Part shown: positions 1 to 12,972 of the stretch, one piece after another
How the letters are laid out: the number at the start of each line of letters is the position of its first letter
Numbering within the stretch: position 1 is the stretch's first letter
Assembly: GCA_905234795.1 (NCBI GenBank)
Contig: CAJOIQ010000011.1
Location: forward strand, 1 to 64,000
Source: an uncultured Bacteroidales bacterium
GTDB taxonomy: Bacteria; Bacteroidota; Bacteroidia; Bacteroidales; UBA932
Length of the DNA: 64,000 nt
Reading direction: 5' to 3'
Translations under genes and position numbers: made by a program
The notes under the pieces: model-generated
Told to the model about the DNA's origin: nothing
Databases searched by the model: none
Seen by the model: the letters and a program-made list of their open reading frames with translations, nothing else

Positions 1-969
1 GCTCCACATACTCACCGCCATTGTTCTTGAACTGGTCACGGAACGTGGCCGTCTGGGAACCCTGGTAGGTATAGTAGCTGGTGCTCCAGCCGGCATACAA
101 GCCAACCGTAGGAAGCAGCGACCATTTGGCGGTATTGAGCTCGCGCTTGGCATTGAGCTCCTGCCAGCTGGCAATCTGAATACCAGGGTTATGCTCCAGG
201 GCAAAATTCACCACAGACTCAGTGGCCACCGGCTCCACCTGCCACACCGGCATCGATGTGTCGATATTCAGTTCCTCATCCACCGGCCAGAACATTAGGT
301 CGGAGAGGGTCATCTTCTGGTCCTGGTACAGATTGTATGTGTTCGTCAGATCATACTGACGGTCTGCCAGATCGGCCTCCATCTGAATCACGTCCGCATG
401 GCCTTTCTGGCCCAGCTCTTCCTGCCTCTTTGCCTTGGCAAGTGCTTGCTCGGCAACGGCCACCTGTTCCTCATACACATCGCAGAGGCGCTTGTAATAG
501 ACCACATTGTAATAGGCCTCCATCACCGCCAGGCAGATATCGGCCTCCACCTGCTTCTCCTGGGAGTCGGCAATGAGCATTCCGGTCTTGGAGATCTTGT
601 AGTTGTTCACTGCCTTGAAGCCGCTGCACTCACGCCGTAATTGTTATGGAACGACGTTGTGTTGAAATACGTATTGGTCTGCGGGTCAATACTGCGGCCG
701 AAGTTGTAGTACGCGTATGTCTGGGCGTTGATCTGCGGGGTAAACAGCGCCAGCGCGGCATCCCGCCGGTCAATCTGCGCATCGCCGACAGCCGCCTGCT
801 GAATCCGAATCTTAGTGGAGTTGGAAATGGCATACTCCATGCAATCGTGCAAAGTCATTACGCCGTCATGCCCGACCTGTTCGGGCATCTCCTGTGCCCG
901 GAGATTTTCGGTCAAGCCGGGAAAGACGAACGCCACAAAAACGAATATGTAAAGTCGTGTCTTCATCAT
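1..969 (-). pseudogene. TolC-family outer-membrane efflux protein, frameshifted and cut by the window edge
   Basis: This is the N-terminal part of a TolC/OMF-type outer-membrane channel for an efflux or type I export pump. A signal peptide (MMKTRLYIFVF..., ending near LRAQ) is followed by the family's DCMEYAISNS...QAAVGDAQIDRRDA segment and YYNFGRSIDPQTN. The first frame stops at 607-609, but the other reading frame continues from about 620 to position 1 without a stop (SGFKAVNNYKI..., EQVAVAEQALAKAKR, LSDLMFWPVDEE, HNPGIQIASW). The join GVSA/SGFK is shorter than in relatives, so some bases, not a multiple of three, seem to be missing. ATG at 967-969 or 964-966 fits the sigma-54 promoter just upstream. 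The rest of the gene, and probably the pump genes, lie to the left of the window. Confidence 0.85.
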
Positions 970-996
970 ACAATGATTTATCACCGTGCCAAATTC

Positions 997-1014
997 TAGC
1001 ACCCGCCGTGCCAA
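997..1014 (-). promoter_or_regulatory. Sigma-54 (-24/-12) promoter of the tolC-like gene
   Basis: Read on the minus strand the sequence is TTGGCACG-GCGG-GTGCT. It has the invariant GG (1012-1011) and GC (1000-999) exactly 10 nt apart and the full TGGCACG -24 box. The predicted transcription start is near 987, giving a leader of about 20 nt before the ATG at 969. A sigma-54 activator gene is present at 14346-15683. Confidence 0.75.
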
Positions 1015-1070
1015 ATGTGATAAAGCATTGATAATGAAGAAGAAATGGTTTTAGCAAGAAATGAAAAAAG

Positions 1071-1118
1071 TGTAAAGTTTACAATACACTTTACAGTTTG
1101 TTGTAAACCCCCTTTACA
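1071..1118. promoter_or_regulatory. Upstream activator sites: TGTAAA/TTTACA palindromes
   Basis: Three elements lie 60-105 nt upstream of the -24 box: TGTAAA-G-TTTACA (1071-1083), a CTTTACA half-site (1089-1095) and TGTAAA-CCCCC-TTTACA (1102-1118). Distance and dyad symmetry are as expected for binding sites of an NtrC-type activator. The same motif recurs at 13447-13475 and 15788-15824, beside the kinase and regulator genes, so that regulator is the probable binder (inference). Confidence 0.6.
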
Positions 1119-1184
1119 CCAACCAAACCCCAACAGACCTAACTAAAACCAAGATTTAGCCCCCTTCGTCCTTATTGTTATCTA

Positions 1185-1490
1185 TTGTTTTTTATCTTTC
1201 CTTTTGGTTTGTACCACATTTGCACCTTTAGGGTAGGGCGTAAAGAAAAATCAGGCAAAACCCCTAAATATTCCCCTGGCTTTACACCAGTTTACACCGC
1301 AGACTTTCCGCCAGTTGAGGTGCCCCAGTATCTCCTGAAACACACCCACATCCCCGCAGCCGTCACCTTCAACCTCTACCTGGACAACAAGGAAGAGTGC
1401 GCCTTCCTCCTGTCCTCCGCCGGCTGCAAAGCCATCATCGACCTCCACGTGGAAGGCATCGTCAACTACGTGGACGGCTTCAACGCCTAG
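1185..1490 (+). other. Possible gene remnant or small ORF, not recognised
   Basis: An open frame of up to 101 codons ends at 1490. Only its last 60 residues or so (from about VEVPQYLLKHTHIP to NYVDGFNA) have the GC-rich third positions of real genes here. The upstream part overlaps AT-rich DNA and further TTTACA motifs (1282-1299). It resembles no family I know. It could be a short protein or the tail of a gene broken when the neighbouring cassettes arrived. No convincing start or promoter is visible. Confidence 0.2.
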
Positions 1491-1527
1491 AAATGGGACT
1501 TCAACGACTAAGACTTTCAATCATTCC

Positions 1528-1562
1528 GTCACTTCCATCAGTTCCGTCAACTGATGGAAGTT
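1528..1562. repeat. Inverted repeat, left copy flanking the Schlafen-type gene
   Basis: A perfect dyad with 12-bp arms CTTCCATCAGTT / AACTGATGGAAG and a 5-nt loop (1532-1560). A near-identical 35-bp copy lies at 3001-3036 in the same orientation, so the two bracket the gene at 1623-2987. It could act as a terminator for anything arriving from the left, or mark a mobile cassette. Confidence 0.65.
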
Positions 1563-1595
1563 GGCTTTTATTCTCCGTATTCCAAATGAATTGAG

Positions 1596-1603
1596 TATAT
1601 TTG
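1596..1603 (+). promoter_or_regulatory. Bacteroidota -7 box (TATATTTG)
   Basis: TATATTTG matches the TAnnTTTG consensus of the main Bacteroidota sigma factor and lies 19 nt before the ATG at 1623. Confidence 0.5.
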
Positions 1604-1622
1604 CAAACCAAGACGGTTCGGT

Positions 1623-2987
1623 ATGATTGACGAAACAAAAGCATTGGAGCTGATTGCCCAGGGAGAAGGCCAGCACGTTGAATTTAAGGAGAGTGTTCCT
1701 TCCAAGGTGAGGGAACTCAGTGAGGAAGTGTGCGCTTTTTCCAATGCCAGCGGCGGCTTTGTCCTTATCGGAGTCAACAACAAGAACGAGTTTGTCAAGG
1801 GGTTCTCCATTGACAATTCCAAGCGGTCCTCCATCCAGGACTCTCTGGATGCCATACAACCTGCGGTCTCCTGCGAGTTCTACCCGCTCACCGTGCAGGG
1901 ACATCCCATCTGGGTCATTGAAGTCCAGGAAGGAGAGAACAAACCCTATGTCGCATCCGGATCCATCTATGTCCGTCGCGGCGCCAACTCGCAGAAGCTT
2001 CGCACTCCAGCCGAAATGCGACAACTATTTGAGGATGCCGGCGCCATGCATTTTGATGAGGCCATCAACAAGTGGTTTCGCATGGAAGACATTTCCGACC
2101 AGGCCGTCAAGGAATTCAAGGAGAAAGCCGGCATCACTTCCACGGCGCCGAATCCCGAACTCATCAAGAATCTGGAACTCCTTGGCCCCAAAGGCGAAAT
2201 GACCAATGTGGTCCCAATGTTCTTCTCCGACGAGTGTGGCAAGCGGATTCCGCAGGCAGTCATCCGCTGCGTCCTCTTCAAGGGGAAAGACAAAGTCCAC
2301 ATCATTGACTCCAAGACCATCGGCGGCCCCATCCTCACTCAGTACAACGAAACTACCAAGTGGCTGAAGCAGCGCCTGGCCGTCGAGTACATAATGGATG
2401 GGTTCAACCCTCGCAAAGAAAAGTGGGAGATTCCCTTGGATGCTATAAAAGAAGCACTTACAAACTCGATTTGCCATCGGGACTATTTCGACACTGCCGC
2501 CAACATCATGGTGGAGCTCTACGATGACCGTCTGGAGATTACCAATCCCGGCGGATTGCTCCCTGTCGTGGCCAAGAACTTCGGACACATGAGCAAGTCC
2601 CGCAATCCAAAGATCTTCGAACTCTTCACCCGGATGGATTTGGTCGAGAAGGTTGGCTCCGGTATCCCTCGAATGGCCGACTTGATGGCGGAGGCCGGGC
2701 TTCCTGCTCCGGAGTACCGGACAGAAGGTTTCTTCACAACGGTTCTTTACAAAGACCAAAGCACTGTAAAGAAAACTGGGAAGGAAACTATAAAGGAAAC
2801 CGAAAAGAAAACGCCCGAACGCATCTTGGAAATCATCAAGGCGAATCCCGGGATAACCGTTTCTGAGATTGCAGATCAGTGTGGCCTTACCTACAACGGT
2901 GCCTATTATCACATTGAAAAAATGAGAAAAAAAGGCATCCTTGCCCATAGGGGCGGTGATAAAGGCGGCGAGTGGGTCATCCTTTAG
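1623..2987 (+). CDS. Schlafen/AlbA_2-type ATP-binding transcriptional regulator
   Basis: This 454-residue protein has the layout of the COG2865 family: an N-terminal AlbA_2 (Schlafen-like) domain at about residues 10-130 (GEGQHVEFKES, GGFVLIGVNN, YVRRGANSQ), a central region, a GHKL ATPase-like segment at about 270-370 (KEALTNSICHRDY, LEITNPGGLLP, RNPKIFELFTRMDLVEKVGSGI), and a C-terminal winged helix (ILEIIKANPGITVSEIADQCGL). Members are usually called ATP-dependent DNA helicase-like or putative regulators and are common in mobile and defence-rich regions; the biochemical function is unsettled. It stands alone with its own promoter and is bracketed by two inverted repeats (1528-1562, 3001-3036), which suggests it travels as a cassette. 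Confidence 0.85.
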   Translation: MIDETKALELIAQGEGQHVEFKESVPSKVRELSEEVCAFSNASGGFVLIGVNNKNEFVKGFSIDNSKRSSIQDSLDAIQPAVSCEFYPLTVQGHPIWVIEVQEGENKPYVASGSIYVRRGANSQKLRTPAEMRQLFEDAGAMHFDEAINKWFRMEDISDQAVKEFKEKAGITSTAPNPELIKNLELLGPKGEMTNVVPMFFSDECGKRIPQAVIRCVLFKGKDKVHIIDSKTIGGPILTQYNETTKWLKQRLAVEYIMDGFNPRKEKWEIPLDAIKEALTNSICHRDYFDTAANIMVELYDDRLEITNPGGLLPVVAKNFGHMSKSRNPKIFELFTRMDLVEKVGSGIPRMADLMAEAGLPAPEYRTEGFFTTVLYKDQSTVKKTGKETIKETEKKTPERILEIIKANPGITVSEIADQCGLTYNGAYYHIEKMRKKGILAHRGGDKGGEWVIL

Positions 2988-3000
2988 ATTTCCATTAAAC

Positions 3001-3040
3001 CATCACTTCCATCATTTTCGTCAACTGATGGAAGTTTTTT
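3001..3040 (+). terminator. Inverted repeat, right copy; probable terminator
   Basis: Near-identical to the repeat at 1528-1562. The arms CTTCCATCA.../...TGATGGAAG are followed directly by TTTTTT on the plus strand, so it can terminate transcription of the Schlafen-type gene that ends at 2987. Confidence 0.6.
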
Positions 3041-3109
3041 CTTCAAATCATATTGCCTACGGGACCTGGGCCTGCATTTCTATACAGCACTATTCTTTTT
3101 TGGCGGCTG

Positions 3110-3787
3110 CTATACATAATCTTTAACCACGTCATAAAAAGCATAGGGCTCCCGGGAATATGCGGCCCACATCTTATCTCCATAGCAGAAGTGCCACCAC
3201 TCACCAGGGTAGTTGACAAAGCCGGCGGCCTTCATGGCTGTTAGGAGGATATGCCGATCCTTCCTTTGTTCCTTAGTGATATCCTTGCATTTAGTCGGGG
3301 TTCTCTTATTATGCTCCAAATACCCAGTACCCATATCCAGCGGCGTTCCATCATCTTTGCAAAGGGTCAGGTCAACAGCGCCTCCAGTTTGGTGCCCGCT
3401 GCCTCCTACACTAGCACTGATTCTGTTCAAAGCTGTTTGAATCTGCAGTTCGTTATAATCCGGATGCGCCTCTGCTATCTCCTTTTTGTCGCGTTCACGA
3501 AGCCGTTCCTGTTTCTTGGGAGAACGGTATAATTCATAAATCAGTAGCTTCAGGCCGATTTCTTTATATACGGCCGCTGCGGCATTCTCCAGCCGTTCTA
3601 TCATTTCTTTGCGGGCATAGTAGGATTCGATGCCATCTGCATAGAGGATATTATCACTATTAGAGTTGACAAGCTCTTGCCCGCACTCTCTAACTTCCTT
3701 CCGATTGATGATCTCTGCAGGAAGAATCTGTCGCAGGCCAAGTCGCAGGAGAACGTGATTATAAAAGACTCTTGTCGTCATTGTCAA
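3110..3787 (-). CDS. D-Ala-D-Ala dipeptidase-like protein (VanX/M15 family)
   Basis: This 225-residue protein of the peptidase M15D (VanX) type would hydrolyse D-alanyl-D-alanine or a similar small peptide. The zinc-site motifs are intact: SGHQTGGAVDLTL (His and Asp ligands, about residues 130-142) and GEWWHF (catalytic Glu and His ligand, about 191-196). An Arg in YRSP, expected in VanX enzymes, is also present. No signal peptide is evident, so it is probably cytoplasmic. The start could be codon 1 or codon 3 (ATG at 3781). It reads in the same direction as the RiPP operon upstream but is separated from it by a broken ORF and gaps, so a role as immunity or processing protein is only conjecture. 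Confidence 0.8.
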   Translation of the reverse strand: MTMTTRVFYNHVLLRLGLRQILPAEIINRKEVRECGQELVNSNSDNILYADGIESYYARKEMIERLENAAAAVYKEIGLKLLIYELYRSPKKQERLRERDKKEIAEAHPDYNELQIQTALNRISASVGGSGHQTGGAVDLTLCKDDGTPLDMGTGYLEHNKRTPTKCKDITKEQRKDRHILLTAMKAAGFVNYPGEWWHFCYGDKMWAAYSREPYAFYDVVKDYV

Positions 3788-3841
3788 ACAGATAATACAG
3801 AAGAAAAGTGCAGAGGGAGCATCGAGATCAGGGCCGTCGAA

Positions 3842-4138
3842 CTATTTCTTATACATGATTTCAAGAAGGGCAGGGCCTGAATAAAGGTATTCTTTGGCTT
3901 CGAAGTCGTTATTGAACAACTTGGATTCACACTGTCTATCTCCTTCAAGAATACTATAGTCAAACTCCTGCCCCGTATGGCTATCCCGAGCTCTCCAACT
4001 ATATCGCTGATTATTTCCTTCAGCAGTCACAAGACAATCTGATATGACCTCCAGATAGTCAATATGGCCAGAAAACAGCTCGCAGAATCTTGCTTCTGGA
4101 TAGATGTCCTAATCAACATATTTACATGGCACTTTCAT
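3842..4138 (-). pseudogene. Small protein gene interrupted by an in-frame TAG
   Basis: A 98-codon frame runs from ATG 4136-4138 (MKVPCKYVD) to the stop at 3842 and is broken only by a TAG at 4109-4111 (codon 10). After it the frame continues as DIYPEARFCELFSGHIDYLEVISDCLV and on to ALLEIMYKK. The encoded protein is acidic and not recognised. A shorter product could start at the ATG at 4030 (62 residues). Either the gene is dead, the base is wrong, or the short form is used. It lies just downstream of the RiPP operon, on the same strand. Confidence 0.4.
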
Positions 4139-4166
4139 ATAACTCTAACAAAAGATAGTGTGAGTT

Positions 4167-4793
4167 CTATTCCATTTCGCTTATTTGCCTGGCGTATCTC
4201 TTCCAACGCTTAGCCTTCTGATAAACGTCACGAGCCCCGTTAGGGATAAGTATTAGGCATTTGTCATCTACGCCAAGTGTGCTGATTTTAGGCGGGTTAT
4301 TACACAACAAGATGAGCTTTTCTACTTTGTTATCAAAAGCTTCCCTTCCTATTAGGCGCACAGTTGAAGGAATAGTTATCTGTTGCAAAGATGAGCAAAA
4401 CAAGAAAGCTTCTTTATCAATGATTTCCAATCCTTCGGGAAGGGAGATGTCCTTGAGGTTAATATTATACGAGAAGGCTCTGACTCCTATACGCTTTATA
4501 CCCGGCTTAACGTCGAAAGATTTAAGACCCCCTTCGTATCTTTCCGGCCCATGAGCCTGTTCCCAATGCCTTTCATCAGTTGAGACAGGAGCAGAATAGA
4601 ACGACGCTATAAAATTGTCAGCAAAAGCAGTCTCATAAACAGCGGCCTCTACTGATGTCTCACGGTCATAGAGAGACAGATAAGTATCCATGTGTACTCT
4701 GCCGTCTTTATCCAGGAACTGCTCATCATGAATTTCCTGATCAGACGAGAATTGAGGTACAGGGCTTCTGAACAGGTTAAATAGTCGTCTCAT
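4167..4793 (-). CDS. Leucine-rich-repeat (BspA-type LRR_5) protein at the end of the RiPP operon
   Basis: This 208-residue protein has no signal peptide. From about residue 90 it has BspA/LRR_5-type repeats: IKRIGVRAFSYNINLKDISLPEGL, IIDKEAFLFCSSLQQITIPSTV, LIGREAFDNKVEKLIL. It ends with a short basic tail (YQKAKRWKRYARQI). BspA-like repeats usually mediate protein-protein binding, often at the cell surface, but the lack of an export signal points to a cytoplasmic partner. Its start overlaps the end of the membrane-protein gene by 17 nt, so it is translationally coupled to the RiPP operon. It could be an immunity or scaffold protein (inference). Confidence 0.7.
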   Translation of the reverse strand: MRRLFNLFRSPVPQFSSDQEIHDEQFLDKDGRVHMDTYLSLYDRETSVEAAVYETAFADNFIASFYSAPVSTDERHWEQAHGPERYEGGLKSFDVKPGIKRIGVRAFSYNINLKDISLPEGLEIIDKEAFLFCSSLQQITIPSTVRLIGREAFDNKVEKLILLCNNPPKISTLGVDDKCLILIPNGARDVYQKAKRWKRYARQISEME

Positions 4794-5757
4794 AGTAACT
4801 CTCGAATTGCTTTTGAACTATTGCTGAATCAAAACTCCAAGCGGCAGCAAGCCACGCAAGGATTCCAGAATTATCCTTATCATCAGTTTTAATGCTCTGC
4901 TCCAAGAGGTTAATATAGTTATCCATCGAGGTCTTCTCCATAAATCCTGAAAGATAATTCCTGAACGTCTCGGAATTCTTCTGTGATAAGGCATCTTTAC
5001 ATTCTTGCAGAGGGCCTATTTTACACAGTTTTGAGTAAAGGAGAACGCCCGTATCATCTTGTTTAGGTGCGACAAAAGAAACACTTTTGAAAGATGCAAT
5101 ATCCTTGTCTTCAACATGCTTGAAATGGTAGTCGATTATGGTAGAAAGAAGATGATCAGCGTAATTGCTGGAATTGTCTTTATTAATGTGATACAGTTCT
5201 ATCAATACTTTTATAGGAGTCTGTAATAAATCAAGCAAATCCCGGTCTGATAAGCTTGTTTGATGGTCTAACTTGTCTATACAAGCATCTATGACAGAAT
5301 CATATTTATTCATTTGATTCTTGAGAGATAACAAGTGAGCATACCTCATTGCATCGTTGCGGTAATCTTCAAGAATGAAACAATCCGCAAATTGGGGCAA
5401 ATAAATAGAACGAAGCAGGTTTTGACTTATTAGGGATCGGTCATTAATAAGTGCTCGTATATAGGACATTTTTCTATAAACAACCTGTATCAGTCGGTCA
5501 CTGACAACAAGTCTATTCTTCTTGTTTGTTCGTTCCACGTTTTTGGCTGTTCTCTTAGCATACAGGTATCCAAGGAAACCAAACACAACACCGAGAACAC
5601 TGGCAATCGCTGCGATGATTGCCATAGTCAGATTCAATTGAACGGTTTGAGGATCTGAGGCTTCCGCTATCTGATTAACCTTGGGGCCGATGACATTCAA
5701 AGTGTCGCTAATACTTTGAAGGATGTCATAATCTGTATTTCCTGGAATAGTTGGCAT
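4777..5757 (-). CDS. Membrane-anchored protein of unknown function, RiPP operon
   Basis: A 326-residue protein that I do not recognise. One strongly hydrophobic segment at about residues 43-66 (MAIIAAIASVLGVVFGFLGYLY) is followed by a basic stretch (AKRTAKNVERTNKKN), predicting a short outside N-terminus and a large, mostly helical cytoplasmic domain of about 250 residues. It starts 1 nt after the second radical SAM gene and overlaps the LRR gene, so it belongs to the same transcript. With no dedicated transporter or protease visible in the cluster, it is a candidate for immunity, sensing or membrane tethering of the maturation complex (inference). Confidence 0.65.
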   Translation of the reverse strand: MPTIPGNTDYDILQSISDTLNVIGPKVNQIAEASDPQTVQLNLTMAIIAAIASVLGVVFGFLGYLYAKRTAKNVERTNKKNRLVVSDRLIQVVYRKMSYIRALINDRSLISQNLLRSIYLPQFADCFILEDYRNDAMRYAHLLSLKNQMNKYDSVIDACIDKLDHQTSLSDRDLLDLLQTPIKVLIELYHINKDNSSNYADHLLSTIIDYHFKHVEDKDIASFKSVSFVAPKQDDTGVLLYSKLCKIGPLQECKDALSQKNSETFRNYLSGFMEKTSMDNYINLLEQSIKTDDKDNSGILAWLAAAWSFDSAIVQKQFESYYETTI

Positions 5758-5758
5758 A

Positions 5759-6970
5759 TTATAAGTATTTTATTTCAAGACATTTAGATAAGAAAAGACG
5801 CATCGCATCACAATATGTCTCCTTATCTTCTGACGACATGTAAACATGCTCTGCATAGCAACCGCCGGCGCAGTGATACTTGGCTGGGCACTCGCTACAT
5901 AATTCAAGAGAATTGTTATGCGAGAATACCCTATGCGCGCTATCGTTGTCAATGGTGCAACCCTGTTCAGAGGCGCTTCCAATCTTAAACTCCTCGAATT
6001 TAGGTTCAAGGTCGGAGGAAACAAAATTACATCCTGTTATATTGCCATCCGCAGCCAAAACAAACTTGCCTTCACAGAAGCGGTCTTGAAGAACTGAGAC
6101 AGCGTTCAAGTACGGGCAGGTCAAGCGGATTCCCAATTCGTCAGCCCTTTGTTTTGCAGCAAAGAAATTGTCTACGAAAGACTGGTAGTAATCTTCTTTT
6201 GAGGCGAACCGGGTGAAACTGTCATTGGGGACGAGCGGTTTGAAGGACACTTGCTCTACTTGAGGAATTGTACGGTGCATCACTTCCATCATTTCACTCA
6301 TGCGGTGAATATTCTCCTCAGTGACAACGGTGGTTATCCCAACATCGACTCCACGGGAAGCATAAATGTTAATATTTCTGGTAACTTCTTCGTAATGACC
6401 GCGGAATTTGTTCTGTGCATCTTCCAATATATCGTATGATGCGCAGATGCCTGCCCCCGTCTTAAGGCAAGTATTAATGATGTCCTCATCAATGATGGAG
6501 CAATTTGTGACGATAGAAATATAGATACCGCCCTCCCGCTTCTGGTTCAAAGCGACAGCATATTCAATGCTCTCCTTAACAACTGGCCAGGAAAGTAAAG
6601 GCTCACCTCCACCTATATAAATCAAGGTAAGTTTCTTCCTGGGAAGCCGGTCTGGCCTTATGAACCATTCTAAAGCCTTTCTGAGCATTGAGGCGCTCAT
6701 CTCCAAAGAAGAACGGCCTTTTGCCGAATAACAGTAAGCACAATGAAAATTACACTTATTGTTCGGCAGGAGCATCAGTGTTCTGAAGGAGTCCGGTTCT
6801 GGAGAAATGTGAAATACCTGGGAGTCCGGGACCTCAGCTATTTCTTTCCTGAAATCATCCACTTCTGACTGGACATCAATGAGCTTTACCCTTTTTTTTA
6901 GGGGCGCGTAGGCCAAAAGCTTTCCTCTATTGGCTCCCGTGGTGATGGGTATTGTAAAAACTTCAATCAT
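5759..6970 (-). CDS. Radical SAM/SPASM peptide-modifying enzyme 2
   Basis: This 403-residue radical SAM enzyme of the SPASM subfamily has the CxxxCxxC cluster motif CNFHCAYCY (C73, C77, C80), a SAM-binding IGGGEPLL segment and a C-terminal auxiliary-cluster region (FVLAADGNITGC... LCSECPAKYHCAGGCYAEH). SPASM proteins of this size typically install thioether, cyclophane or similar links in ribosomal peptides, or mature sulfatases; no sulfatase is nearby. Its ATG overlaps the stop of the RimO-like gene by 4 nt. An N-terminal region of about 65 residues precedes the radical SAM core and may help bind substrate. Confidence 0.85.
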   Translation of the reverse strand: MIEVFTIPITTGANRGKLLAYAPLKKRVKLIDVQSEVDDFRKEIAEVPDSQVFHISPEPDSFRTLMLLPNNKCNFHCAYCYSAKGRSSLEMSASMLRKALEWFIRPDRLPRKKLTLIYIGGGEPLLSWPVVKESIEYAVALNQKREGGIYISIVTNCSIIDEDIINTCLKTGAGICASYDILEDAQNKFRGHYEEVTRNINIYASRGVDVGITTVVTEENIHRMSEMMEVMHRTIPQVEQVSFKPLVPNDSFTRFASKEDYYQSFVDNFFAAKQRADELGIRLTCPYLNAVSVLQDRFCEGKFVLAADGNITGCNFVSSDLEPKFEEFKIGSASEQGCTIDNDSAHRVFSHNNSLELCSECPAKYHCAGGCYAEHVYMSSEDKETYCDAMRLFLSKCLEIKYL

Positions 6971-8244
6971 AAAGCGGCCAGGAGATTTTTATCAGCTTTC
7001 CCACTAATACGTACGTTGTAGAACTCACCAACAGAAAGCTGTTTTTCTGTTCGTATCTTGACAACAGGATCTGCCATCGGAGTGCTGTGCTCGCTTCTCC
7101 CTATATAGTCGTCATCTTGTTTACGATCAATAATAACCCGTACATCTTTTCCGATGGTCTGGTCATTTATTTCATTCAAGACTTGCTTTTGAACAGCAAG
7201 TATGCCAAGCGCCCGTTCTTTCTTAATTTCAGGGCTAATGGAATCAGTATAGTTCTGATGACAGAAACTTCCGACTTGATGAGAATAACGGAAAACCCCA
7301 AGGCGCTCAAACCGCTGTTCCGCAACAAATTGCTTTAGCGCCTCATAATCAGGTTCAGTCTCGCCCGGGTGCCCAACCATGACGGTTGTTCTTAGATAAA
7401 GACCAGGCACTGATTCTCGGATATCTGAAATAAGTTGAGTCAAACTTTCTTTGCTCATACCACGCCTCATTAGTTTGAGCATCTTGGTTTCTGAGTGCTG
7501 TATGGCCATGTCTAGATATTTGCATACGTTTTCCCGCTCACGGATGACAGGAAGTAATTCTTTTGGAAAACCTGACGGATAGGCATAGTGGAGACGAATC
7601 CACTCTATACCAGGCAAGTCTGATATGCGAGAAACAAGTTCGGAGATTCGCTTCTTCCCGTATAAATCCAGGCCATAAGTGGTTAAATTCTGAGCAACGA
7701 GCTGGATTTCTTTTACTCCTTGGGAAGCAAGCCAACGGCACTCTTCCAGAACTCTTTCCATGGGTTCTGACTTTAGGGGACCATTTAAAATGGGCTTAAT
7801 ACAATATGAACAGGGCTGATTGCATCCTTCGGATATCTTGACAAAGGCATAATGTGAAGGGGTTGTCAGATATCGTTTAAGTCCAATAGCCATCCCAATA
7901 CCAAGATCTTGTGGCAGAGTCTCCCAATTGAAATTCCCATATATTTTGTCGACTTCCGGGACAATCTCTGTCAACTTCTCGCCAAGTTTCTGGGAATAGC
8001 AGCCCATTATCCATAGCTGTCCCACACGTCCTTCCTTTTTCATCCGGGCGTAACGGCGAATAGTAGATAATGATTCATCTTCCGCTTCGCCGATGAAACC
8101 GCAGGTGTTGATTATGGCGATATCGGCCGATTGCTCCAGTTCTCCGAAATGAACATCGTGCCCGGCATCTACAAGCACATGCATAAGTCTCTCGCTATCA
8201 ACGAGATTCTTGAAGCATCCGATATTTAGCAGATTGATTCTCAT
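6967..8244 (-). CDS. RimO-like radical SAM methylthiotransferase of the RiPP operon
   Basis: This 425-residue protein has all three domains of the methylthiotransferase (MTTase) family. The N-terminal UPF0004 domain has three cluster cysteines: NIGCFKNLVDSE (C10), NTCGFIGEA (C48) and MGCYSQ (C82). The radical SAM core has EGCNQPCSYC (C141, C145, C148), and a TRAM-like C-terminus follows. Motifs such as LVAQNLTTYGLDLYG and YLDMAIQHSETKML match RimO, which adds SCH3 to an aspartate of ribosomal protein S12. The usual FRG...SR loop after the cluster is changed to LNGPLKSEP, suggesting another substrate. The 4-nt overlaps on both sides place it firmly in the operon. The likely substrate is the precursor peptide at 10900-11016 rather than S12 (inference). 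Confidence 0.85.
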   Translation of the reverse strand: MRINLLNIGCFKNLVDSERLMHVLVDAGHDVHFGELEQSADIAIINTCGFIGEAEDESLSTIRRYARMKKEGRVGQLWIMGCYSQKLGEKLTEIVPEVDKIYGNFNWETLPQDLGIGMAIGLKRYLTTPSHYAFVKISEGCNQPCSYCIKPILNGPLKSEPMERVLEECRWLASQGVKEIQLVAQNLTTYGLDLYGKKRISELVSRISDLPGIEWIRLHYAYPSGFPKELLPVIRERENVCKYLDMAIQHSETKMLKLMRRGMSKESLTQLISDIRESVPGLYLRTTVMVGHPGETEPDYEALKQFVAEQRFERLGVFRYSHQVGSFCHQNYTDSISPEIKKERALGILAVQKQVLNEINDQTIGKDVRVIIDRKQDDDYIGRSEHSTPMADPVVKIRTEKQLSVGEFYNVRISGKADKNLLAAL

Positions 8245-9527
8245 ACGACAGAGCCTATCAATACGCTAGGCGTAACTTCATTAATCAGGACCTGTGCATC
8301 GGCATTGATGGGGAGGTTGTCCTCCGACTTAAACAAAATGGTCCGGAGCCTATGGTCACGGCCGAACAGGAAAGAGCGGTCCGCCGGCCATCGTCCTTCT
8401 ACGATAACGGGGATGGTGCGGCCAATGTCGGCTTTATATGCGGCTTCTTTGATGGCATCTCTGGCTTCAATAATTGCCTTGTAGCGTTCATCTTTCACGC
8501 TTTCCGGTACATCGTCCCGGAATTGTCTGGATGCAGCGGTTCCGTTTCTCATGGAAAAACGGAAAATGTTAATGTCATCAAAACGAAGTTCCCGAATCAG
8601 CGAGAGTGTCTGCTGGAAGTCTTCTTCGGTTTCGTTGCAGAAACCTACCATTATGTCGGTCACGATGGAAATATCAGGAATTTCATGCTTTACAATCTTG
8701 TACCTTTCTCTGTACTGCTCTACTGTGTAGCCCCTGTGCATTCTTCGAAGGACACTGTTCGAGCCGGACTGGACCGGAAGATGAACAACGTGCATGATGT
8801 TGTCATGCCGCTTCATCACATGAAGAATATCATCAGAAAACGTGACGGGATGCGAGGATAAGAATTTGATTCTCAATTCGGGGCAAAGAACCGAAGTTCG
8901 TTCCAGCAAATCGGCGAAGCCATAGGCGTACCTGTCAATAATATGCCCTACAAAAGTCAACTCCCTATACCCTTGATCGGCAATGTTGCGACATTCATGA
9001 AGGATAGATTTCATGTCGCGGCTATGTTCTTTTCCGCGGGTGTAAGGTTCTATGCAGTAAGAGCAATACTGGTTGCACCCCTTCATGATTGTAATAGCCG
9101 CAGTGGTTTTGTCTTCGATTGTGCGCAGAGGGCTGATGTCGGCATACATCTCGTCCAAACAATCCCTGTTCAATACAAAGTGACTCTTCTTGTCGGATAT
9201 CAAATCTGGAAGAGACCGGTATTGATCAGGACCGATAATGATGTCCACAAAGGGATACCTATCAAAAAGGGTTTTATCCAACTGCGTAGCAAAACAGCCA
9301 CAAATGACTATGGTACGACTCTGAAGTCCTTTTTCCGCAATTTGCTCCAGGCGAGAGAATGTTCTTTCATGTCCGATTTCTCTAACCGAGCAGCAGTTCA
9401 GGATAATAACATCGGCATCTTCCATCCGATCGATCTGATTAAAACCTTTGGCTGCGAGAATCGATAGGAGAATCTCGCTGTCGCAGATGTTCATCCTGCA
9501 ACCATATGTTTCTATATAAACGTTCAC
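8241..9527 (-). CDS. MiaB-like radical SAM methylthiotransferase of the RiPP operon
   Basis: This 428-residue MTTase is closer to MiaB than to RimO. It has YGCRMNICDSE (C10), NCCSVRE (C46) and GCFATQ (C78) for the auxiliary cluster, GCNQYCSYCIEPYTRGKEHSR (C151, C155, C158) for the SAM cluster, SSHPVTFSDDIL, and HLPVQSGSNSVLRRMHRGY. MiaB methylthiolates tRNA adenosine-37. Here the conserved LGQNV segment reads VGHIID, and the gene sits between a SPASM enzyme and a RimO-like enzyme with 4-nt overlaps, which argues for a peptide substrate. A diverged second miaB acting on tRNA remains possible. The C-terminus is TRAM-like. Confidence 0.85.
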   Translation of the reverse strand: MNVYIETYGCRMNICDSEILLSILAAKGFNQIDRMEDADVIILNCCSVREIGHERTFSRLEQIAEKGLQSRTIVICGCFATQLDKTLFDRYPFVDIIIGPDQYRSLPDLISDKKSHFVLNRDCLDEMYADISPLRTIEDKTTAAITIMKGCNQYCSYCIEPYTRGKEHSRDMKSILHECRNIADQGYRELTFVGHIIDRYAYGFADLLERTSVLCPELRIKFLSSHPVTFSDDILHVMKRHDNIMHVVHLPVQSGSNSVLRRMHRGYTVEQYRERYKIVKHEIPDISIVTDIMVGFCNETEEDFQQTLSLIRELRFDDINIFRFSMRNGTAASRQFRDDVPESVKDERYKAIIEARDAIKEAAYKADIGRTIPVIVEGRWPADRSFLFGRDHRLRTILFKSEDNLPINADAQVLINEVTPSVLIGSVV

Positions 9528-10831
9528 TTTTTGCCCTGTTTGGCTAAAAGGTACATCTCATATCGCATTTCCATCAGTTGTTCCATATGACTCTTTTCAG
9601 GACAACAATGGTTCAAATGCAATCCTTCATTCCGATTACGGAGGCGCACCAATGGGCATCCGCCACCACAAAGGGCGATAAACTCACAATTGAGACACTT
9701 AGGGTCTCTCGTATAATCGGCTCCTGTAATATAGTCAGCGAAGCCGGCCATATTCTTGATGCCTTCATGAACGTTTCCTAATGTCTGTTCTGGATTCCCC
9801 ACCATTCTCCAACACTTGTATATCTCTCCTTCCGGTCCAATTACAAAAGCAAAGTATTTGCTTCCGACACAACTATGTCTCCTGAATCGAGGGAGGAAAG
9901 ACTTGATTTCGATACCATAACGGTCAAATAGATCCAACGCAAATTGGGCTTTGTAACCGCCCTCTGAAATGTTATGCTCTGGAGAGACACACTCAGAGGA
10001 AAGAAGATCTGAGACAAATCCAGGATAAAGATTCACGCGATCGCTACTTATCTCAGATTTGAAAGAATCATAAAAATCGGCATACATCTCCATGTTACGC
10101 CGGTCTATATTTGTACGTATATCAACGTGGACAGAAGGATTCACCTGAAGAAGATACTTAAGATTCTCCATAATGGTCCTATACGTTGGTTGTCCACCCA
10201 AAAGAGGCCTTCTCTCATTATGGACGGACTCCGGCCCGTCAAATGTGATTTGCACATCATTGATGGCAAGTTCGGCAAACAAATCGGCCTTTTCCTTCGT
10301 AAGCAGATAGCCGTTGGTAACAATCTTGGCAGCATACTCAATACCAAGTGTGAGAAACGCCCGGGAAAGACGCTCAATACTGCCGAAATTTATGAGAGGT
10401 TCTCCTCCGTACCAAGTAACATTTAGTCTTTTAATCTGCTTATTCGACTGTACGAATCTTATGATTGCAACTTCAGTATCCTCGTTCATTGTTACCATCG
10501 GACGCTCCCGCTCATAACAATAGATGCACCCGAAATTACATCCTCTGGTTGGAAGTATGGTAAGTGAAACGTCAGCAGAATTATACTTGTTTTTCAGAAC
10601 ATCTGATAAATAAATGTTCAGGTCATCCTCCTGTCGTTTGACAATTATCCTCGAGGATATCAGAAAATCAGCAAACTTATAGTCTTTATAAGAGTCTGGA
10701 TTATCTTTTAATTCCAGCCATCCTTGGATTTGAGAGTCATCAATTTGGAGAAAAACCTGCGACATGGTGTTATATAGCAGGTATCCGTATTTCTTTGATT
10801 TTGAGAGGATATTGTATTTGGACCAGTACAT
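9524..10831 (-). CDS. Radical SAM/SPASM peptide maturase 1, first enzyme of the RiPP operon
   Basis: A 435-residue enzyme. Its N-terminal 85 residues (SKYNILSKSKKYGYLLYNTMS...) look like the leader-binding segment found in many RiPP radical SAM maturases. Then come TRGCNFGCIYCY (C98, C102, C105), WYGGEPLINF, VTNGYLL and a SPASM domain (HSCVGSKYFAFVIGPEGEIYKCW ... DPKCLNCEFIALCGGGCPL ... HCCPEK). It is the closest gene downstream of the precursor, separated from it by a hairpin, and its stop overlaps the MiaB-like start by 4 nt. Its likely job is a cross-link or other modification at the Cys/Trp/Asp-rich core (inference). Confidence 0.88.
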   Translation of the reverse strand: MYWSKYNILSKSKKYGYLLYNTMSQVFLQIDDSQIQGWLELKDNPDSYKDYKFADFLISSRIIVKRQEDDLNIYLSDVLKNKYNSADVSLTILPTRGCNFGCIYCYERERPMVTMNEDTEVAIIRFVQSNKQIKRLNVTWYGGEPLINFGSIERLSRAFLTLGIEYAAKIVTNGYLLTKEKADLFAELAINDVQITFDGPESVHNERRPLLGGQPTYRTIMENLKYLLQVNPSVHVDIRTNIDRRNMEMYADFYDSFKSEISSDRVNLYPGFVSDLLSSECVSPEHNISEGGYKAQFALDLFDRYGIEIKSFLPRFRRHSCVGSKYFAFVIGPEGEIYKCWRMVGNPEQTLGNVHEGIKNMAGFADYITGADYTRDPKCLNCEFIALCGGGCPLVRLRNRNEGLHLNHCCPEKSHMEQLMEMRYEMYLLAKQGKK

Positions 10832-10852
10832 AGCTATTCTTCAAAATAAATA

Positions 10853-10890
10853 GGGAGCCAAGAATCCATAGTAAAGGATTTTTGGCTCCC
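10853..10890 (-). terminator. Attenuator hairpin between precursor gene and maturation operon
   Basis: A 15-bp stem (GGGAGCCAAAAATCC paired with GGATTCTTGGCTCCC, one mismatch or wobble) and 8-nt loop begin 9 nt after the precursor stop. The stem is followed on the minus strand by the T-rich TATTTATTTTGAAG. It probably lets the precursor be made in excess over the enzymes, by partial termination or by protecting the short mRNA. Confidence 0.75.
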
Positions 10891-10899
10891 ACCCCACAA

Positions 10900-11016
10900 T
10901 TAGAGGCTGAGATCGCCCCAGCACATGTCGCAAACCGAGAGGTTGTGAGCGCTGAACTCATTGATGGAGTTGGCCTCCTGAGCAGCGGCGACGACCTGAA
11001 ATTCAAGAGCTTTCAT
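10900..11016 (-). CDS. RiPP precursor peptide, 38 residues
   Basis: ATG (11014-11016) to TAA (10900-10902) encodes 38 residues. A charged and aliphatic leader starts MKALEFQVVAAAQEANSI and continues NEFSAHNLSV. The C-terminal core is CDMCWGDLSL, with two cysteines, one tryptophan and two aspartates in ten residues. Small size, position just before a radical SAM/SPASM maturase, and the hairpin between them are the usual layout for a precursor and its maturase. The GDL segment resembles the KDL around the S12 aspartate that RimO modifies, and a RimO-like enzyme is in the operon. No classical leader cleavage site such as GG precedes the core. I know of no named family with this sequence. Confidence 0.8.
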   Translation of the reverse strand: MKALEFQVVAAAQEANSINEFSAHNLSVCDMCWGDLSL

Positions 11017-11089
11017 ACTTTTGAATGGTTTTATGTGAGTGCCTACTCTATTCTGGCTTTTCGGCTTCTGCCATTAATATATAAGCGTG

Positions 11090-12286
11090 TTAAGAACAAA
11101 TCTTAAAAACTATTACTGCAATTACAATCCAAAAAATCCATCCAAAAACTTTCGACCAAACAGGAGTGCTAGATTGTTTTGAGGAGCTAACGTTGGAGAA
11201 GGAATGCACGGCCCCGCTTGAGCCATTGAATGATTCTTTCTTTTGAGGCAGGTCATAAAAACCAAGTTTATTATACACATCACGGACTTCCGGAAGAACC
11301 GAACTTGGTGAAGGGACCTTGAAATCTCGCTCATACAAAAGGTCTTTCCTGTTATTACGATGCTCAATGGCTAATTTAATCCAATAATCTGCACTTTCAC
11401 CCCCGCTTATTTTCCCACATTTATACATCTCAGCTATCATCTCATAACACTTCCAGTAGCCCCAGTTTTTACATATTCTGAAATAACTATATGCTTTTTG
11501 ATAGTTAAGATATGGGGATTTTGTGTCATAATATAACAATCCGAGTCCCTTGTTAGCCAACGGATAACTATCAACTATTGCTTCAAGTATTTTTTTAGCA
11601 TATGCAGCATTGGCATCATGGATAAAGGCGTTTTTTGCCAAATGATACATGCCCTGGTGAGTTTCTGCTTCTCTGTAATAACGCTTGGCCAAAGCTAAGT
11701 ATTCCTTAGCCTGTTGTATGTTAATGTCGGAATCATAATACATATCATTATATATGATTCCCATTTGACACGTAGCAATACTATGTCCTTGGTCGGACGC
11801 TTGTCTTAGCCAATACAATGCATCATTGTAAGCCTTAGGGTTTTTTTCTATAAGGTATTTACCATAAATCCATTGAGCCTCTGCCAACCCGGTTTCAGCT
11901 CCTTCTTGAACATATTCAAGCGCTTGCTGAAAGGAATAGTATTCATACTTTAATGCATACAAACGAGCAAGTAAGCATTTCGCTATTAGATTATTCTTGA
12001 ACGGAAGCAAACTGTCAATAGCCTCCTGATGTTGTTTGGCTATTGATGCGTCGGTTCGTAATAATTTGCCGAGATAGATTGAGTCATATGGATAAATGTA
12101 CTTATTATCAAAAGCATCGAATGCTTCTGTTGCATACGATAACTTGACGACTTCGTCAGTCGAATAATGCTTTAGCGCAAAATCTTTTTCTGCAGGGTTA
12201 AGTCCCATAGTCCTTTTACGATATAAATTACTATCTAAATGAAGGCAGAGTAATAAACATGATGCTATTGCAGATCTCCCGCCCAA
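11090..12286 (-). CDS. Sel1/TPR-like repeat protein with C-terminal membrane anchor
   Basis: The frame has 398 codons. The second possible start (ATG at 12208, MGLNPAEKDFALKHYSTDEV) gives 372 residues and avoids the 22-nt overlap with the upstream gene. Sel1-like helical repeats fill the middle (AEAQWIYGKYLIEKNPKAYNDALYWLRQASDQGHSIATCQMGIIY, LALAKRYYREAETHQGMYHLAK). The last 20 residues (VFGWIFWIVIAVIVFKICS) form a tail anchor, so the repeats face the cytoplasm. It precedes the RiPP precursor by 73 nt on the same strand and may share its transcript. Sel1 proteins are usually scaffolds; a role in the RiPP system is unproven. Confidence 0.6.
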   Translation of the reverse strand: MGGRSAIASCLLLCLHLDSNLYRKRTMGLNPAEKDFALKHYSTDEVVKLSYATEAFDAFDNKYIYPYDSIYLGKLLRTDASIAKQHQEAIDSLLPFKNNLIAKCLLARLYALKYEYYSFQQALEYVQEGAETGLAEAQWIYGKYLIEKNPKAYNDALYWLRQASDQGHSIATCQMGIIYNDMYYDSDINIQQAKEYLALAKRYYREAETHQGMYHLAKNAFIHDANAAYAKKILEAIVDSYPLANKGLGLLYYDTKSPYLNYQKAYSYFRICKNWGYWKCYEMIAEMYKCGKISGGESADYWIKLAIEHRNNRKDLLYERDFKVPSPSSVLPEVRDVYNKLGFYDLPQKKESFNGSSGAVHSFSNVSSSKQSSTPVWSKVFGWIFWIVIAVIVFKICS

Positions 12287-12972
12287 GTTGGAAGGTCAAC
12301 ACCTTCAAACATTTCGATATTGAACGAGGCTTTCCCATCCGGAGAGTACATTGCCGCAACAATGTTCATAATGTCAATGAGATAATTACCAAGAGGCTCA
12401 AGTTCAACATCTTGATTGTTTGGATCAAGACCTGCCTTATACTTTTCAGCATGATCCTGAACAGCATTATCTGTCATATGATTGATGAGAGCATAAGCAG
12501 AACTAACCATATTACCAAAGAAAGAGCCCCTTTCAATAGGATCTTTAGTAATCTCAGCCAGTTTCTCTTCACCCAACTTTAACAGCCGTGCTTTTTGGGA
12601 ATACGTTAGGCTATTGTGCAATAGACCAGTAAGCTCTATATTCATTAGAAGGTCCTGGGCGGATTGCTTTGCATTTGATGAAACGTCAATGGCAGCAATA
12701 TCGCTTATGAGGTCATCGTATGATCTCATGGCCGGAGCGCTATCAGAAGATGTCCCTGATGTGGATGCTGCAGGATTATCAGTTGGTACGGGCGCCTGTA
12801 CGGCGTTATTGCCATTATCTTTGCGGAATAAGCCGACTATTAGCCCAAAAAGCGCCTTGATACCAAGCCATAATAGTTTTAGAATCCAGCCACAAACTTT
12901 GAGGAATGCCTTAAAGAGCCATTCAACAATCTCAAGAAACCAACCAAACATAGTGTCAACAACGTCCGCCAT
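12265..12972 (-). CDS. Protein with hydrophobic N-terminal region, function unknown
   Basis: From the ATG at 12972 the product has 235 residues (a longer frame from 13047 adds an unlikely basic extension). Residues 8-49 (MFGWFLEIVEWLFKAFLKV..., ILKLLWLGIKALFGLIVGLF) are strongly hydrophobic, amphipathic and rich in Trp, Phe and Lys, followed by RKDNGNN. A Pro/Thr/Ser linker (APVPTDNPAASTSGTSSDSAP) leads to a soluble helical C-terminal domain (YDDLISDIAAIDVSSNAKQSAQ to FEGVDLPTWAGDLQ). I do not recognise it. It could tether to or insert in membranes. It is the first gene of the minus-strand run that leads into the RiPP operon, with AT-rich composition like the rest of the island. Confidence 0.55.
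   Translation of the reverse strand: MADVVDTMFGWFLEIVEWLFKAFLKVCGWILKLLWLGIKALFGLIVGLFRKDNGNNAVQAPVPTDNPAASTSGTSSDSAPAMRSYDDLISDIAAIDVSSNAKQSAQDLLMNIELTGLLHNSLTYSQKARLLKLGEEKLAEITKDPIERGSFFGNMVSSAYALINHMTDNAVQDHAEKYKAGLDPNNQDVELEPLGNYLIDIMNIVAAMYSPDGKASFNIEMFEGVDLPTWAGDLQ

What the first reader, a model, noticed from the sequence alone, without database searches (positions are those of the whole stretch)
4167..11016. Undescribed-looking RiPP operon with four radical SAM enzymes, two of them methylthiotransferases
Seen: on the minus strand, a 38-codon precursor ORF (core CDMCWGDLSL), a 15-bp hairpin, then SPASM radical SAM, MiaB-like MTTase, RimO-like MTTase, SPASM radical SAM, a one-helix membrane protein and an LRR protein, with 4-nt overlaps between the enzyme genes and a 1-nt gap or overlap after. 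Known: SPASM enzymes cross-link ribosomal peptides; MiaB and RimO add SCH3 to tRNA and to an S12 aspartate. Inferred: a peptide product carrying one or two methylthio groups plus a cross-link, matured in the cytoplasm, with no visible protease or exporter. I know of no named RiPP class with this gene content.
Basis: partly seen in the sequence, partly recalled or inferred. Interest (0 to 1): 0.95.

Follow-up and report, generated by a model that had tools for sequence, protein, structure and literature searches.

The report
Peptide operon with methylthiotransferases
A bacterial gene cluster encodes a tiny peptide whose last ten amino acids are identical in all five loci found, beside four radical enzymes predicted to attach methylthio groups and a cross-link to it, which would make it a new type of ribosomal peptide natural product.

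Summary
The operon is real. On the minus strand: DUF805b cis-regulatory RNA (11040-11074), a 38-codon peptide gene, a hairpin, SPASM, MiaB-like, RimO-like and SPASM-type radical SAM genes, a membrane protein, an LRR protein. The genome has other MiaB and RimO genes besides. Peptide, enzyme order and RNA recur in MAG hRUG909 (93-99%) and in two distant Bacteroidales genomes (enzymes 40-71% identical); a fifth locus is cut by its contig end. All five peptides end CDMCWGDLSL: 7 of 10 core codons vary but no residue does, while 19 of the first 24 residues vary. The cluster MTTases form separate clades and keep their catalytic cysteines; the MiaB-like clade lacks 19 positions invariant in 12 housekeeping MiaBs, and RimO's acidic TRAM domain is near neutral. 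The two full distant relatives add a third MTTase and aminopeptidases; two relatives carry integrase and mobilisation genes; here the region is a low-GC island. Best reading: a likely mobile RiPP operon whose decapeptide core is predicted to be methylthiolated and cross-linked. No chemistry was shown; my paper searches found no MTTase at work in a RiPP operon. Side finding: DUF805b RNA precedes bacteriocin-like peptide genes in Chryseobacterium.

The parts
11040..11074 (-). DUF805b RNA (Rfam RF02914), cis-regulatory RNA family of unknown role, ending 23 nt before the peptide start codon
   Evidence: 49.2 bits, gathering score 35.6, E 2.1e-12; present before the peptide in the other four loci
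10933..11016 (-). leader part of the peptide gene (residues 1-28)
   Evidence: variable part: 19 of the first 24 residues vary over five loci
10903..10932 (-). core part of the peptide gene, CDMCWGDLSL (residues 29-38); stop codon 10900-10902
   Evidence: 7 of 10 codons vary, 0 residues vary over five loci
10853..10890 (-). hairpin between peptide gene and S1
   Evidence: 15-nt arms, 93% complementary; a hairpin is predicted at this place in all five loci (no shuffle control)
9524..10831 (-). S1, SPASM radical SAM enzyme; likely cross-linking enzyme
   Evidence: 71% identical in the distant loci
8241..9527 (-). MiaB-like methylthiotransferase, predicted to act on the peptide
6967..8244 (-). 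RimO-like methylthiotransferase, predicted to act on Asp35 of the peptide
5759..6970 (-). S2, second SPASM-type radical SAM enzyme
   Evidence: 40% identical and in the same place in L154 and L155
4777..5757 (-). one-helix membrane protein, role unknown
   Evidence: no family; one hydrophobic stretch near residues 38-68
4167..4793 (-). LRR_5 protein, role unknown
   Evidence: a 33% identical LRR protein lies downstream in L154
3110..3787 (-). M15-family peptidase (D-Ala-D-Ala dipeptidase type), possible member
   Evidence: PF01427 85.3 bits; also in hRUG909; not found by tblastn in L154-L156

Best explanation
This is an operon for a ribosomally made peptide whose conserved last ten residues (CDMCWGDLSL) are predicted to be methylthiolated by the RimO-like and MiaB-like enzymes and likely cross-linked by one or both SPASM-type enzymes. 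Shown: gene order, RNA element, further MiaB and RimO genes elsewhere in the genome, an invariant core with synonymous drift, a variable leader, and diverged MTTases that keep their catalytic cysteines. Inferred: DUF805b RNA controls the peptide gene; the hairpin lets more peptide than enzyme be made; S1 binds the leader and forms a thioether or similar link from Cys29 or Cys32; the RimO-like enzyme puts SCH3 on the beta carbon of Asp35 (a Gly-Asp-Leu site, like the Lys-Asp-Leu site of S12, recalled); the MiaB-like enzyme puts SCH3 on Asp30 or on an aromatic carbon of Trp33. The leader would then be trimmed from the N-terminus by peptidases: in relatives M18 and M42 aminopeptidases and an S9 prolyl-oligopeptidase-family protein, the last fitting the Pro directly before the core there. 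An invariant product suggests a fixed partner (a metal, an enzyme or a receptor). The operon likely came in by horizontal transfer.
For: Same order peptide-S1-MiaB-RimO-S2 in L154 and L155, peptide-S1-MiaB in the cut locus L156, whole operon in hRUG909. Core invariant in five loci with 7 of 10 codons varying. Three other MTTase genes in the genome. Cluster RimO-like rows one clade, 100/100; cluster-type MiaB-like rows apart from housekeeping MiaB, 100/100. Nineteen housekeeping-invariant MiaB positions never found in 36 cluster-type rows; mean RimO TRAM charge -8.0 to -0.8. All six cluster cysteines of the MTTase motifs kept; Cys10 is missing only as a gap in 7 of 36 rows. No MTTase by 14 loci with distant S1 relatives. 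S1 and MiaB database hits share five contig lengths against 0.40 expected. DUF805b before the peptide in five loci as before bacteriocin-like genes. Peptidase genes and a third MTTase in relatives.
Against: No modification was shown. The window's MTTases score over NCBI's MiaB and RimO cut-offs, so a housekeeping-type reaction is not excluded; only three RimO positions are lost. Only five loci, two of them 93-99% alike; one database peptide (P0123) ends in LSI, not LSL. No exporter seen; the window lacks the peptidases of its relatives apart from an M15 gene. Structure predictions failed, so an RRE was not tested.
Confidence: 0.68

Rival explanations
1. The MTTases act on S12 and tRNA, not on the peptide: the SPASM enzymes make a peptide that attacks the ribosome, and the extra MiaB and RimO copies would change the producer's own ribosome or tRNA for self-protection.
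For: Both window MTTases pass NCBI's MiaB and RimO cut-offs; DUF805b otherwise often precedes bacteriocin-like genes.
Against: The genome has other MiaB and RimO genes; 19 housekeeping MiaB positions are lost and the RimO TRAM acidity is gone; a third MTTase joins in L154 and L155.
Confidence: 0.1
2. It is a RiPP operon, but the MTTase-type enzymes do other sulfur or radical chemistry on the peptide, for example inserting sulfur as part of a cross-link, rather than adding SCH3.
For: Long stem branches of both cluster clades and a changed Gln-Asn pair at 195-196 of the MiaB-like proteins would allow a new reaction.
Against: All cluster cysteines of both iron-sulfur sites are kept and the sequences stay within MTTase models.
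Confidence: 0.15
3. The short ORF is a regulatory leader peptide with an attenuator hairpin, and the enzymes modify some other protein.
For: A hairpin is predicted between the ORF and S1 in all five loci.
Against: What is kept is a ten-residue motif with synonymous drift, and DUF805b stands before the ORF as it does before bacteriocin-like peptide genes.
Confidence: 0.05

Closest known systems
SPASM-type thioether RiPPs (ranthipeptides, sactipeptides; models TIGR04463, Clo7bot TIGR04334, CefB NF038107, PapB NF047865)
   Same: S1 aligns along most of its length with these maturase models (214.2 bits with TIGR04463); a short peptide gene with Cys stands before it
   Different: Scores far below all curated cut-offs (525 for TIGR04463); two MTTases in the operon; a ten-residue invariant core
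RimO, S12 aspartate methylthiotransferase (TIGR01125)
   Same: Over the cut-off (384.3 against 356.95); all motif cysteines and many RimO positions kept
   Different: Separate clade, extra copy in the genome, TRAM domain no longer acidic, in an operon with a peptide gene
MiaB, tRNA ms2i6A methylthiotransferase (TIGR01574)
   Same: Window copy over the cut-off (377.3 against 355.3); motif cysteines kept
   Different: The L154 copy is below the cut-off (351.1); 19 housekeeping-invariant positions lost; weak TRAM match in the window (17.1 bits against 21)
Grasp-with-spasm operons (gwsG/gwsS)
   Same: On two Elizabethkingia anophelis plasmids such an operon also has DUF805b-type RNA before its peptide gene
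   Different: They use an ATP-grasp ligase, which is absent here, and a GG-leader precursor
Peptide-derived cofactors such as PQQ and mycofactocin (recalled)
   Same: Invariant short core, SPASM enzyme, peptidases that could trim the peptide
   Different: Decapeptide core with two Cys and a Trp, and MTTases; partner proteins of those pathways were not sought

Membership tests
RiPP (general) | Short precursor gene beside tailoring enzyme genes, kept together in relatives | tested here: met
   Five loci, two of them distant and complete
RiPP (general) | Precursor divided into variable leader and conserved core | tested here: met
   Core 0 of 10 residues vary, leader 19 of the first 24
RiPP (general) | Core is modified | not testable with these tools
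   Needs mass spectrometry
RiPP (general) | Leader is removed | tested here: inconclusive
   Peptidase genes in L154 and L155; in the window only an M15 gene 379 nt downstream
Named SPASM maturase families of NCBIfam | Score over the curated cut-off of a maturase equivalog | tested here: not met
   S1 best 214.2 against 525; S2 best 95 against 340; the 25 best of 76 and 65 matches were listed
MiaB (TIGR01574) | Score over 355.3 bits | tested here: inconclusive
   Window 377.3 met, L154 351.1 not met
MiaB (TIGR01574) | Positions invariant in housekeeping MiaB | tested here: not met
   19 positions invariant in 12 housekeeping rows occur in none of 36 cluster-type rows
RimO (TIGR01125) | Score over 356.95 bits | tested here: met
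   Window 384.3, L154 371.1
RimO (TIGR01125) | Acts on ribosomal protein S12 | not testable with these tools
   Indirect: own clade, TRAM charge mean -0.8 against -8.0 in 33 housekeeping rows
DUF805b RNA (RF02914) | Score over the gathering score of 35.6 bits | tested here: met
   49.2 bits in the window, 47.2-49.2 in the other four loci
Grasp-with-spasm | ATP-grasp ligase gene in the operon | tested here: not met
   None among the ten window proteins scanned
Known anti-phage defence systems (PADLOC) | Specific match of operon proteins | tested here: not met
   Eight window proteins scanned: only viperin matches of 21.6-62.1 bits to S1, S2 and MiaB-like, as expected between radical SAM proteins

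The most novel reading that the evidence does not exclude
A mobile RiPP class of Bacteroidota in which repurposed RimO, MiaB and, in relatives, a third MTTase methylthiolate Asp35, Trp33 or Asp30 of one invariant decapeptide that SPASM enzymes cross-link: the first peptide natural product made by methylthiotransferases, kept identical across families because it serves as a shared metal ligand, cofactor or signal. Its 5' RNA, DUF805b, is a pseudoknotted switch shared by bacteriocin-like and modified-peptide genes across Bacteroidota.
Probability: 0.35. Interest if true: 0.93.

Novelty: new variant of a known kind. Interest (0 to 1): 0.84.

Why it matters
Methylthiotransferases are known (recalled) from tRNA and S12 only; a peptide operon with two or three of them would extend the family to natural products and add SCH3 to the tools of RiPP chemistry. 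Precursor and enzymes are small neighbouring genes, so the claim can be tested directly by co-expression. The invariant core points to a conserved molecule shared by distant Bacteroidota; one S1 relative at 69% identity (P0105) stands for 1000 contigs and bears the name Prevotella copri in one source. The link between the DUF805b RNA and bacteriocin-like peptide genes offers that RNA a testable role and a way to find more such operons.

Tried and rejected
Rejected: that the cluster MTTases are the genome's only copies (three further MTTase genes). That S1 relatives at 30-36% identity belong to the same system: no MTTase by tblastn beside any of 14 such loci (11, 3; stretches of 4-20 kb, some ended by their contig). 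A contig length of 8402 shared by a MiaB hit and a genome with a distant S1 relative was a coincidence: L106 has no MTTase. Phages or known plasmids as carriers: two viral-contig scans with S1 found no relative, a DNA pattern of the core none, plasmid and phage searches only relatives below 60% identity and no match to the L154 peptide in plasmids. Two DUF805b-like pattern hits in viral contigs lie inside longer ORFs and were set aside as chance. A second, sub-threshold DUF805b hit in G1290 (25.1 bits) had no such operon beside it. A fixed TAnnTTTG promoter before DUF805b was not seen (5 of 44 sequences). An S12 sequence to check the Asp-Leu site was sought in held loci and not found; that motif is recalled. 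Known defence system: no specific match.

Not achieved: structures of S1 and S2, so no test for an RRE. Loci around the Prevotella copri-type proteins could not be fetched. Family scans covered chosen genes, not every neighbour.

Papers: ten searches of a library of CC-licensed papers; six of them asked for MTTase or methylthio terms with RiPP or precursor terms. Their listings, which showed 3 of 3, 30 of 76, 4 of 5, 15 of 25, 8 of 579 and 4 of 4 papers, named none on MTTases at work in a RiPP operon. Passages found by term were read in PMC10352776 (0 occurrences of methylthio, MiaB or RimO in the main text), PMC8326336 (these terms only in the reference list) and PMC13063428 (12 of 21 places; RimO there as the S12 enzyme). 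All other papers were seen as listings with abstract starts. The 2017 paper that I recall as describing the DUF805 motifs is not held, so its drawing and gene associations were not checked.
Full report
OBSERVATION. The minus-strand genes are there as described: a 38-codon ORF (10900-11016), S1 (9524-10831), MiaB-like (8241-9527, GTG start), RimO-like (6967-8244), S2 (5759-6970), a one-helix membrane protein (4777-5757; one hydrophobic stretch) and an LRR protein (4167-4793). Gaps are 68, -4, -4, -4, +1 and -17 nt. The 15-nt inverted repeat is at 10853-10890. MiaB-like and RimO-like pass NCBI's MTTase subfamily cut-off (390 and 342.7 bits against 251) and the MiaB and RimO cut-offs. S1 carries a SPASM domain over cut-off; S2 matches SPASM maturase models along its length; both are far below the cut-offs of the named maturases listed (25 of 76 and 25 of 65 matches were shown). 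An M15-family peptidase gene (3110-3787) follows 379 nt after the LRR gene.

EXTRA COPIES. The window's genome (G000, 2.29 Mb) has five MTTase genes over the TIGR00089 cut-off: the two here and three elsewhere. Of those, one is 42% identical to the MiaB-like and one 39% to the RimO-like protein; the third is about 23% identical to both. The cluster is therefore not the likely source of housekeeping methylthiolation.

CLOSE RELATIVE. A scan of species genomes with the MiaB-like protein gave 72 loci; one, L001 (hRUG909, an uncultured Prevotellaceae MAG; rumen origin recalled from the name), matches at 93% and carries the operon; the other 71 match at 34-40%, the level of housekeeping MiaB (neighbours examined for eight of those 71). 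Operon proteins in L001 are 93-99% identical, the M15 peptidase 84% over the part held. The same 10,151-base contig appears as G494.

WIDER SEARCH. S1 searches gave, G000 included: 8 of 398 genomes of the window's family at E up to 1e-60, 4 of 400 of its genus at 1e-55, 3 of 144 and 4 of 110 with the database relative P0105 in the more complete genomes of genus and family, and 4 of 393 of the order at 1e-90; the sets overlap. Apart from G000 and G494 all these hits are distant (about 30-36%). The window genus's own RimO is about 49% identical to that of Bacteroides and Prevotella, so I turned to the family of G704, whose RimO is 88% identical to that of Bacteroides finegoldii. There 6 of 398 genomes matched P0105 at E up to 1e-80, three closely (86, 73 and 73%) and three at 36%.

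DISTANT RELATIVES. L154 (G1347) and L155 (G1396) hold peptide-S1-MiaB-RimO-S2 in the same order; identities to the window are S1 71 and 71%, MiaB 51 and 48%, RimO 59 and 57%, S2 41 and 40%. L156 (G1290) holds peptide-S1-MiaB before its contig ends. None of 14 fetched loci with 30-36% S1 relatives shows an MTTase (11, 3). In the protein database the 120 listed S1 relatives (of 1145) and the 120 listed MiaB relatives (of 7993) share five exact longest-contig lengths, against 0.40 expected when lengths are jittered by up to 5%; 0 of 2000 trials reached five. One further equal length (8402), between and a genome contig, proved to be chance.

THE PEPTIDE. The five precursors end in the same ten residues, CDMCWGDLSL. 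Over the five, 7 of 10 core codons vary and no residue does; of the first 24 codons 23 vary at DNA level and 19 in residue. The window and hRUG909 differ little, so four lineages carry most of this. The protein database gave three clusters of 37-38 aa in all: P0121, equal to the window's peptide; P0122; and P0123, which ends LSI instead of LSL. In the three distant loci the core follows Gly-Pro.

MTTASE EVOLUTION. In a 37-row tree (33 other RimOs) the four cluster RimO-like rows form one clade (100/100) on a long branch and group with five RimOs, among them Bacteroides, Parabacteroides and Prevotella (100/96), away from the window genus's own RimOs. In a 48-row tree 36 cluster-type MiaB-like rows stand apart from 12 housekeeping MiaBs (100/100). 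Four of the 36 come from loci with the operon; 32 are proteins that I picked, four of which share a contig length with S1. The program flagged long branches, one of them (P0217) as a possible false join. In the MiaB rows the six motif cysteines are kept; Cys10 is a gap in 7 of 36 cluster-type rows; in RimO rows all four cluster copies keep all six. Nineteen positions invariant in the 12 housekeeping MiaBs occur in none of the 36; Gln195 is His in all 36. For RimO only three positions behave so. Mean TRAM charge goes from -8.0 (range -14 to -1) to -0.8 (-2 to 0) in RimO, and from +3.5 (2 to 6) to +0.9 (-4 to 6, overlapping) in MiaB. I read this as loss of S12 and tRNA binding and gain of a new substrate; that step is inference.

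ADDED GENES IN RELATIVES. After S2, L154 has an M18 aminopeptidase, an M42 aminopeptidase, a third MTTase-type protein in which Pfam finds no TRAM domain, and an S9-family protein; L155 has the M42 and the third MTTase. The third MTTases are 62% identical to each other and about 22-30% to the other MTTases compared; they stay below the TIGR00089 cut-off (227.6 and 210 against 251). A prolyl peptidase beside a core that follows Pro suggests release after that Pro (inference; L155 has the Pro but no S9 gene was seen in the stretch).

MOBILITY. L154 and L156 have a tyrosine integrase and mobilisation genes upstream; a relaxase-like protein in L154 is below its models' cut-offs. I saw none in the parts of L155 and of the window that I examined. 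In the window 4-14 kb has 43% GC against 56% in 16-64 kb (2-kb windows 40-46% and 50-63%). With the RimO tree this points to horizontal acquisition.

DUF805b RNA. This 35-nt Rfam cis-regulatory RNA lies 23 nt before the peptide start (49.2 bits) and 20-23 nt before it in the other four loci. It is the only match over cut-off in each of the five genomes and absent from 14 control genomes (150 of 763-3321 first-look candidates were scored per genome). On two Elizabethkingia anophelis plasmids such an element stands before a GG-leader peptide gene of a grasp-with-spasm operon; the one scanned with Rfam scores 37.9 bits. In 16 Flavobacteriia genomes that I picked (15 Chryseobacterium, 1 Amniculibacterium) the 15 Chryseobacterium have matches over cut-off. 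From 90 loci fetched there, a pattern parsed 80 distinct elements (12 loci did not fit it, one of them below Rfam's cut-off): 77 have an ORF starting 9-46 nt downstream (median 21). By my own pattern 41 of the 80 precede short peptides with a GG-, GA-, GS- or GN-type leader, 17 other short proteins, 19 longer ones, 3 none. Five of five leader peptides tested match NF047798 'bacteriocin-like protein'; longer ones include tail-collar, caspase, trypsin-like and LodA proteins, so the RNA is not confined to peptide genes. Positions 10 and 34 pair in 80 of 86 elements against a shuffle mean of 50.4 and maximum of 60 in 10000, which suggests a pseudoknot that the Rfam model does not draw; many elements are related, so there are fewer independent events. 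For the window this supports the short ORF as a real gene.

MECHANISM. Shown: anatomy, conservation, divergence. Inferred: S1, perhaps with S2, forms a Cys-derived link; the RimO-like enzyme modifies Asp35 in Gly-Asp-Leu; the MiaB-like enzyme modifies Asp30 or Trp33; peptidases trim the leader. An invariant core argues for a product with a fixed partner; the RNA shared with bacteriocin-like genes argues for a role in competition. The two are not reconciled here.

KNOWN OR NEW. The searches listed under Tried and rejected found no paper on MTTases at work in a RiPP operon; the library is a subset of the literature and several listings were capped. I rate this a new variant of a known kind: a RiPP operon with a new class of tailoring enzyme.

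Noticed in passing
L170-L259 (Chryseobacterium), L168 and L169 (Elizabethkingia plasmids): DUF805b RNA stands a near-fixed distance before bacteriocin-like GG-leader peptide genes, tail-collar, caspase and LodA genes, up to 19 matches per genome, with a covarying 10-34 pair.
   Followed up: partly
L154:4118-5353 and L155:4014-5258: A third MTTase-type protein without a TRAM domain, 62% identical between the two loci and far from MiaB and RimO, sits after an M42 aminopeptidase.
   Followed up: partly
L155:11842-15351: Upstream of the operon in G1396: SH3, ThiF (E1-like) and JAB genes of the kind found in ubiquitin-like defence systems.
   Followed up: no
window 3110-12972 against L001: Identity between window and hRUG909 is uneven: RimO-like 99.5%, MiaB-like 93%, M15 peptidase 84%, which looks like recombination.
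   Followed up: no
window 11090-12972: Two genes upstream (one with a weak Sel1/TPR-like match, one with none over cut-off) travel with the operon in hRUG909 at 98-99%; a short stretch like the second gene's start recurs upstream of the peptide in L154 and L156.
   Followed up: no
L106:920-1177: A 34% S1 relative stands beside an 85-aa Cys-rich GG-leader peptide: another SPASM peptide system in the window's family.
   Followed up: no
L154:13582-13929: A YidD-type gene lies just upstream of the peptide gene in G1347.
   Followed up: no
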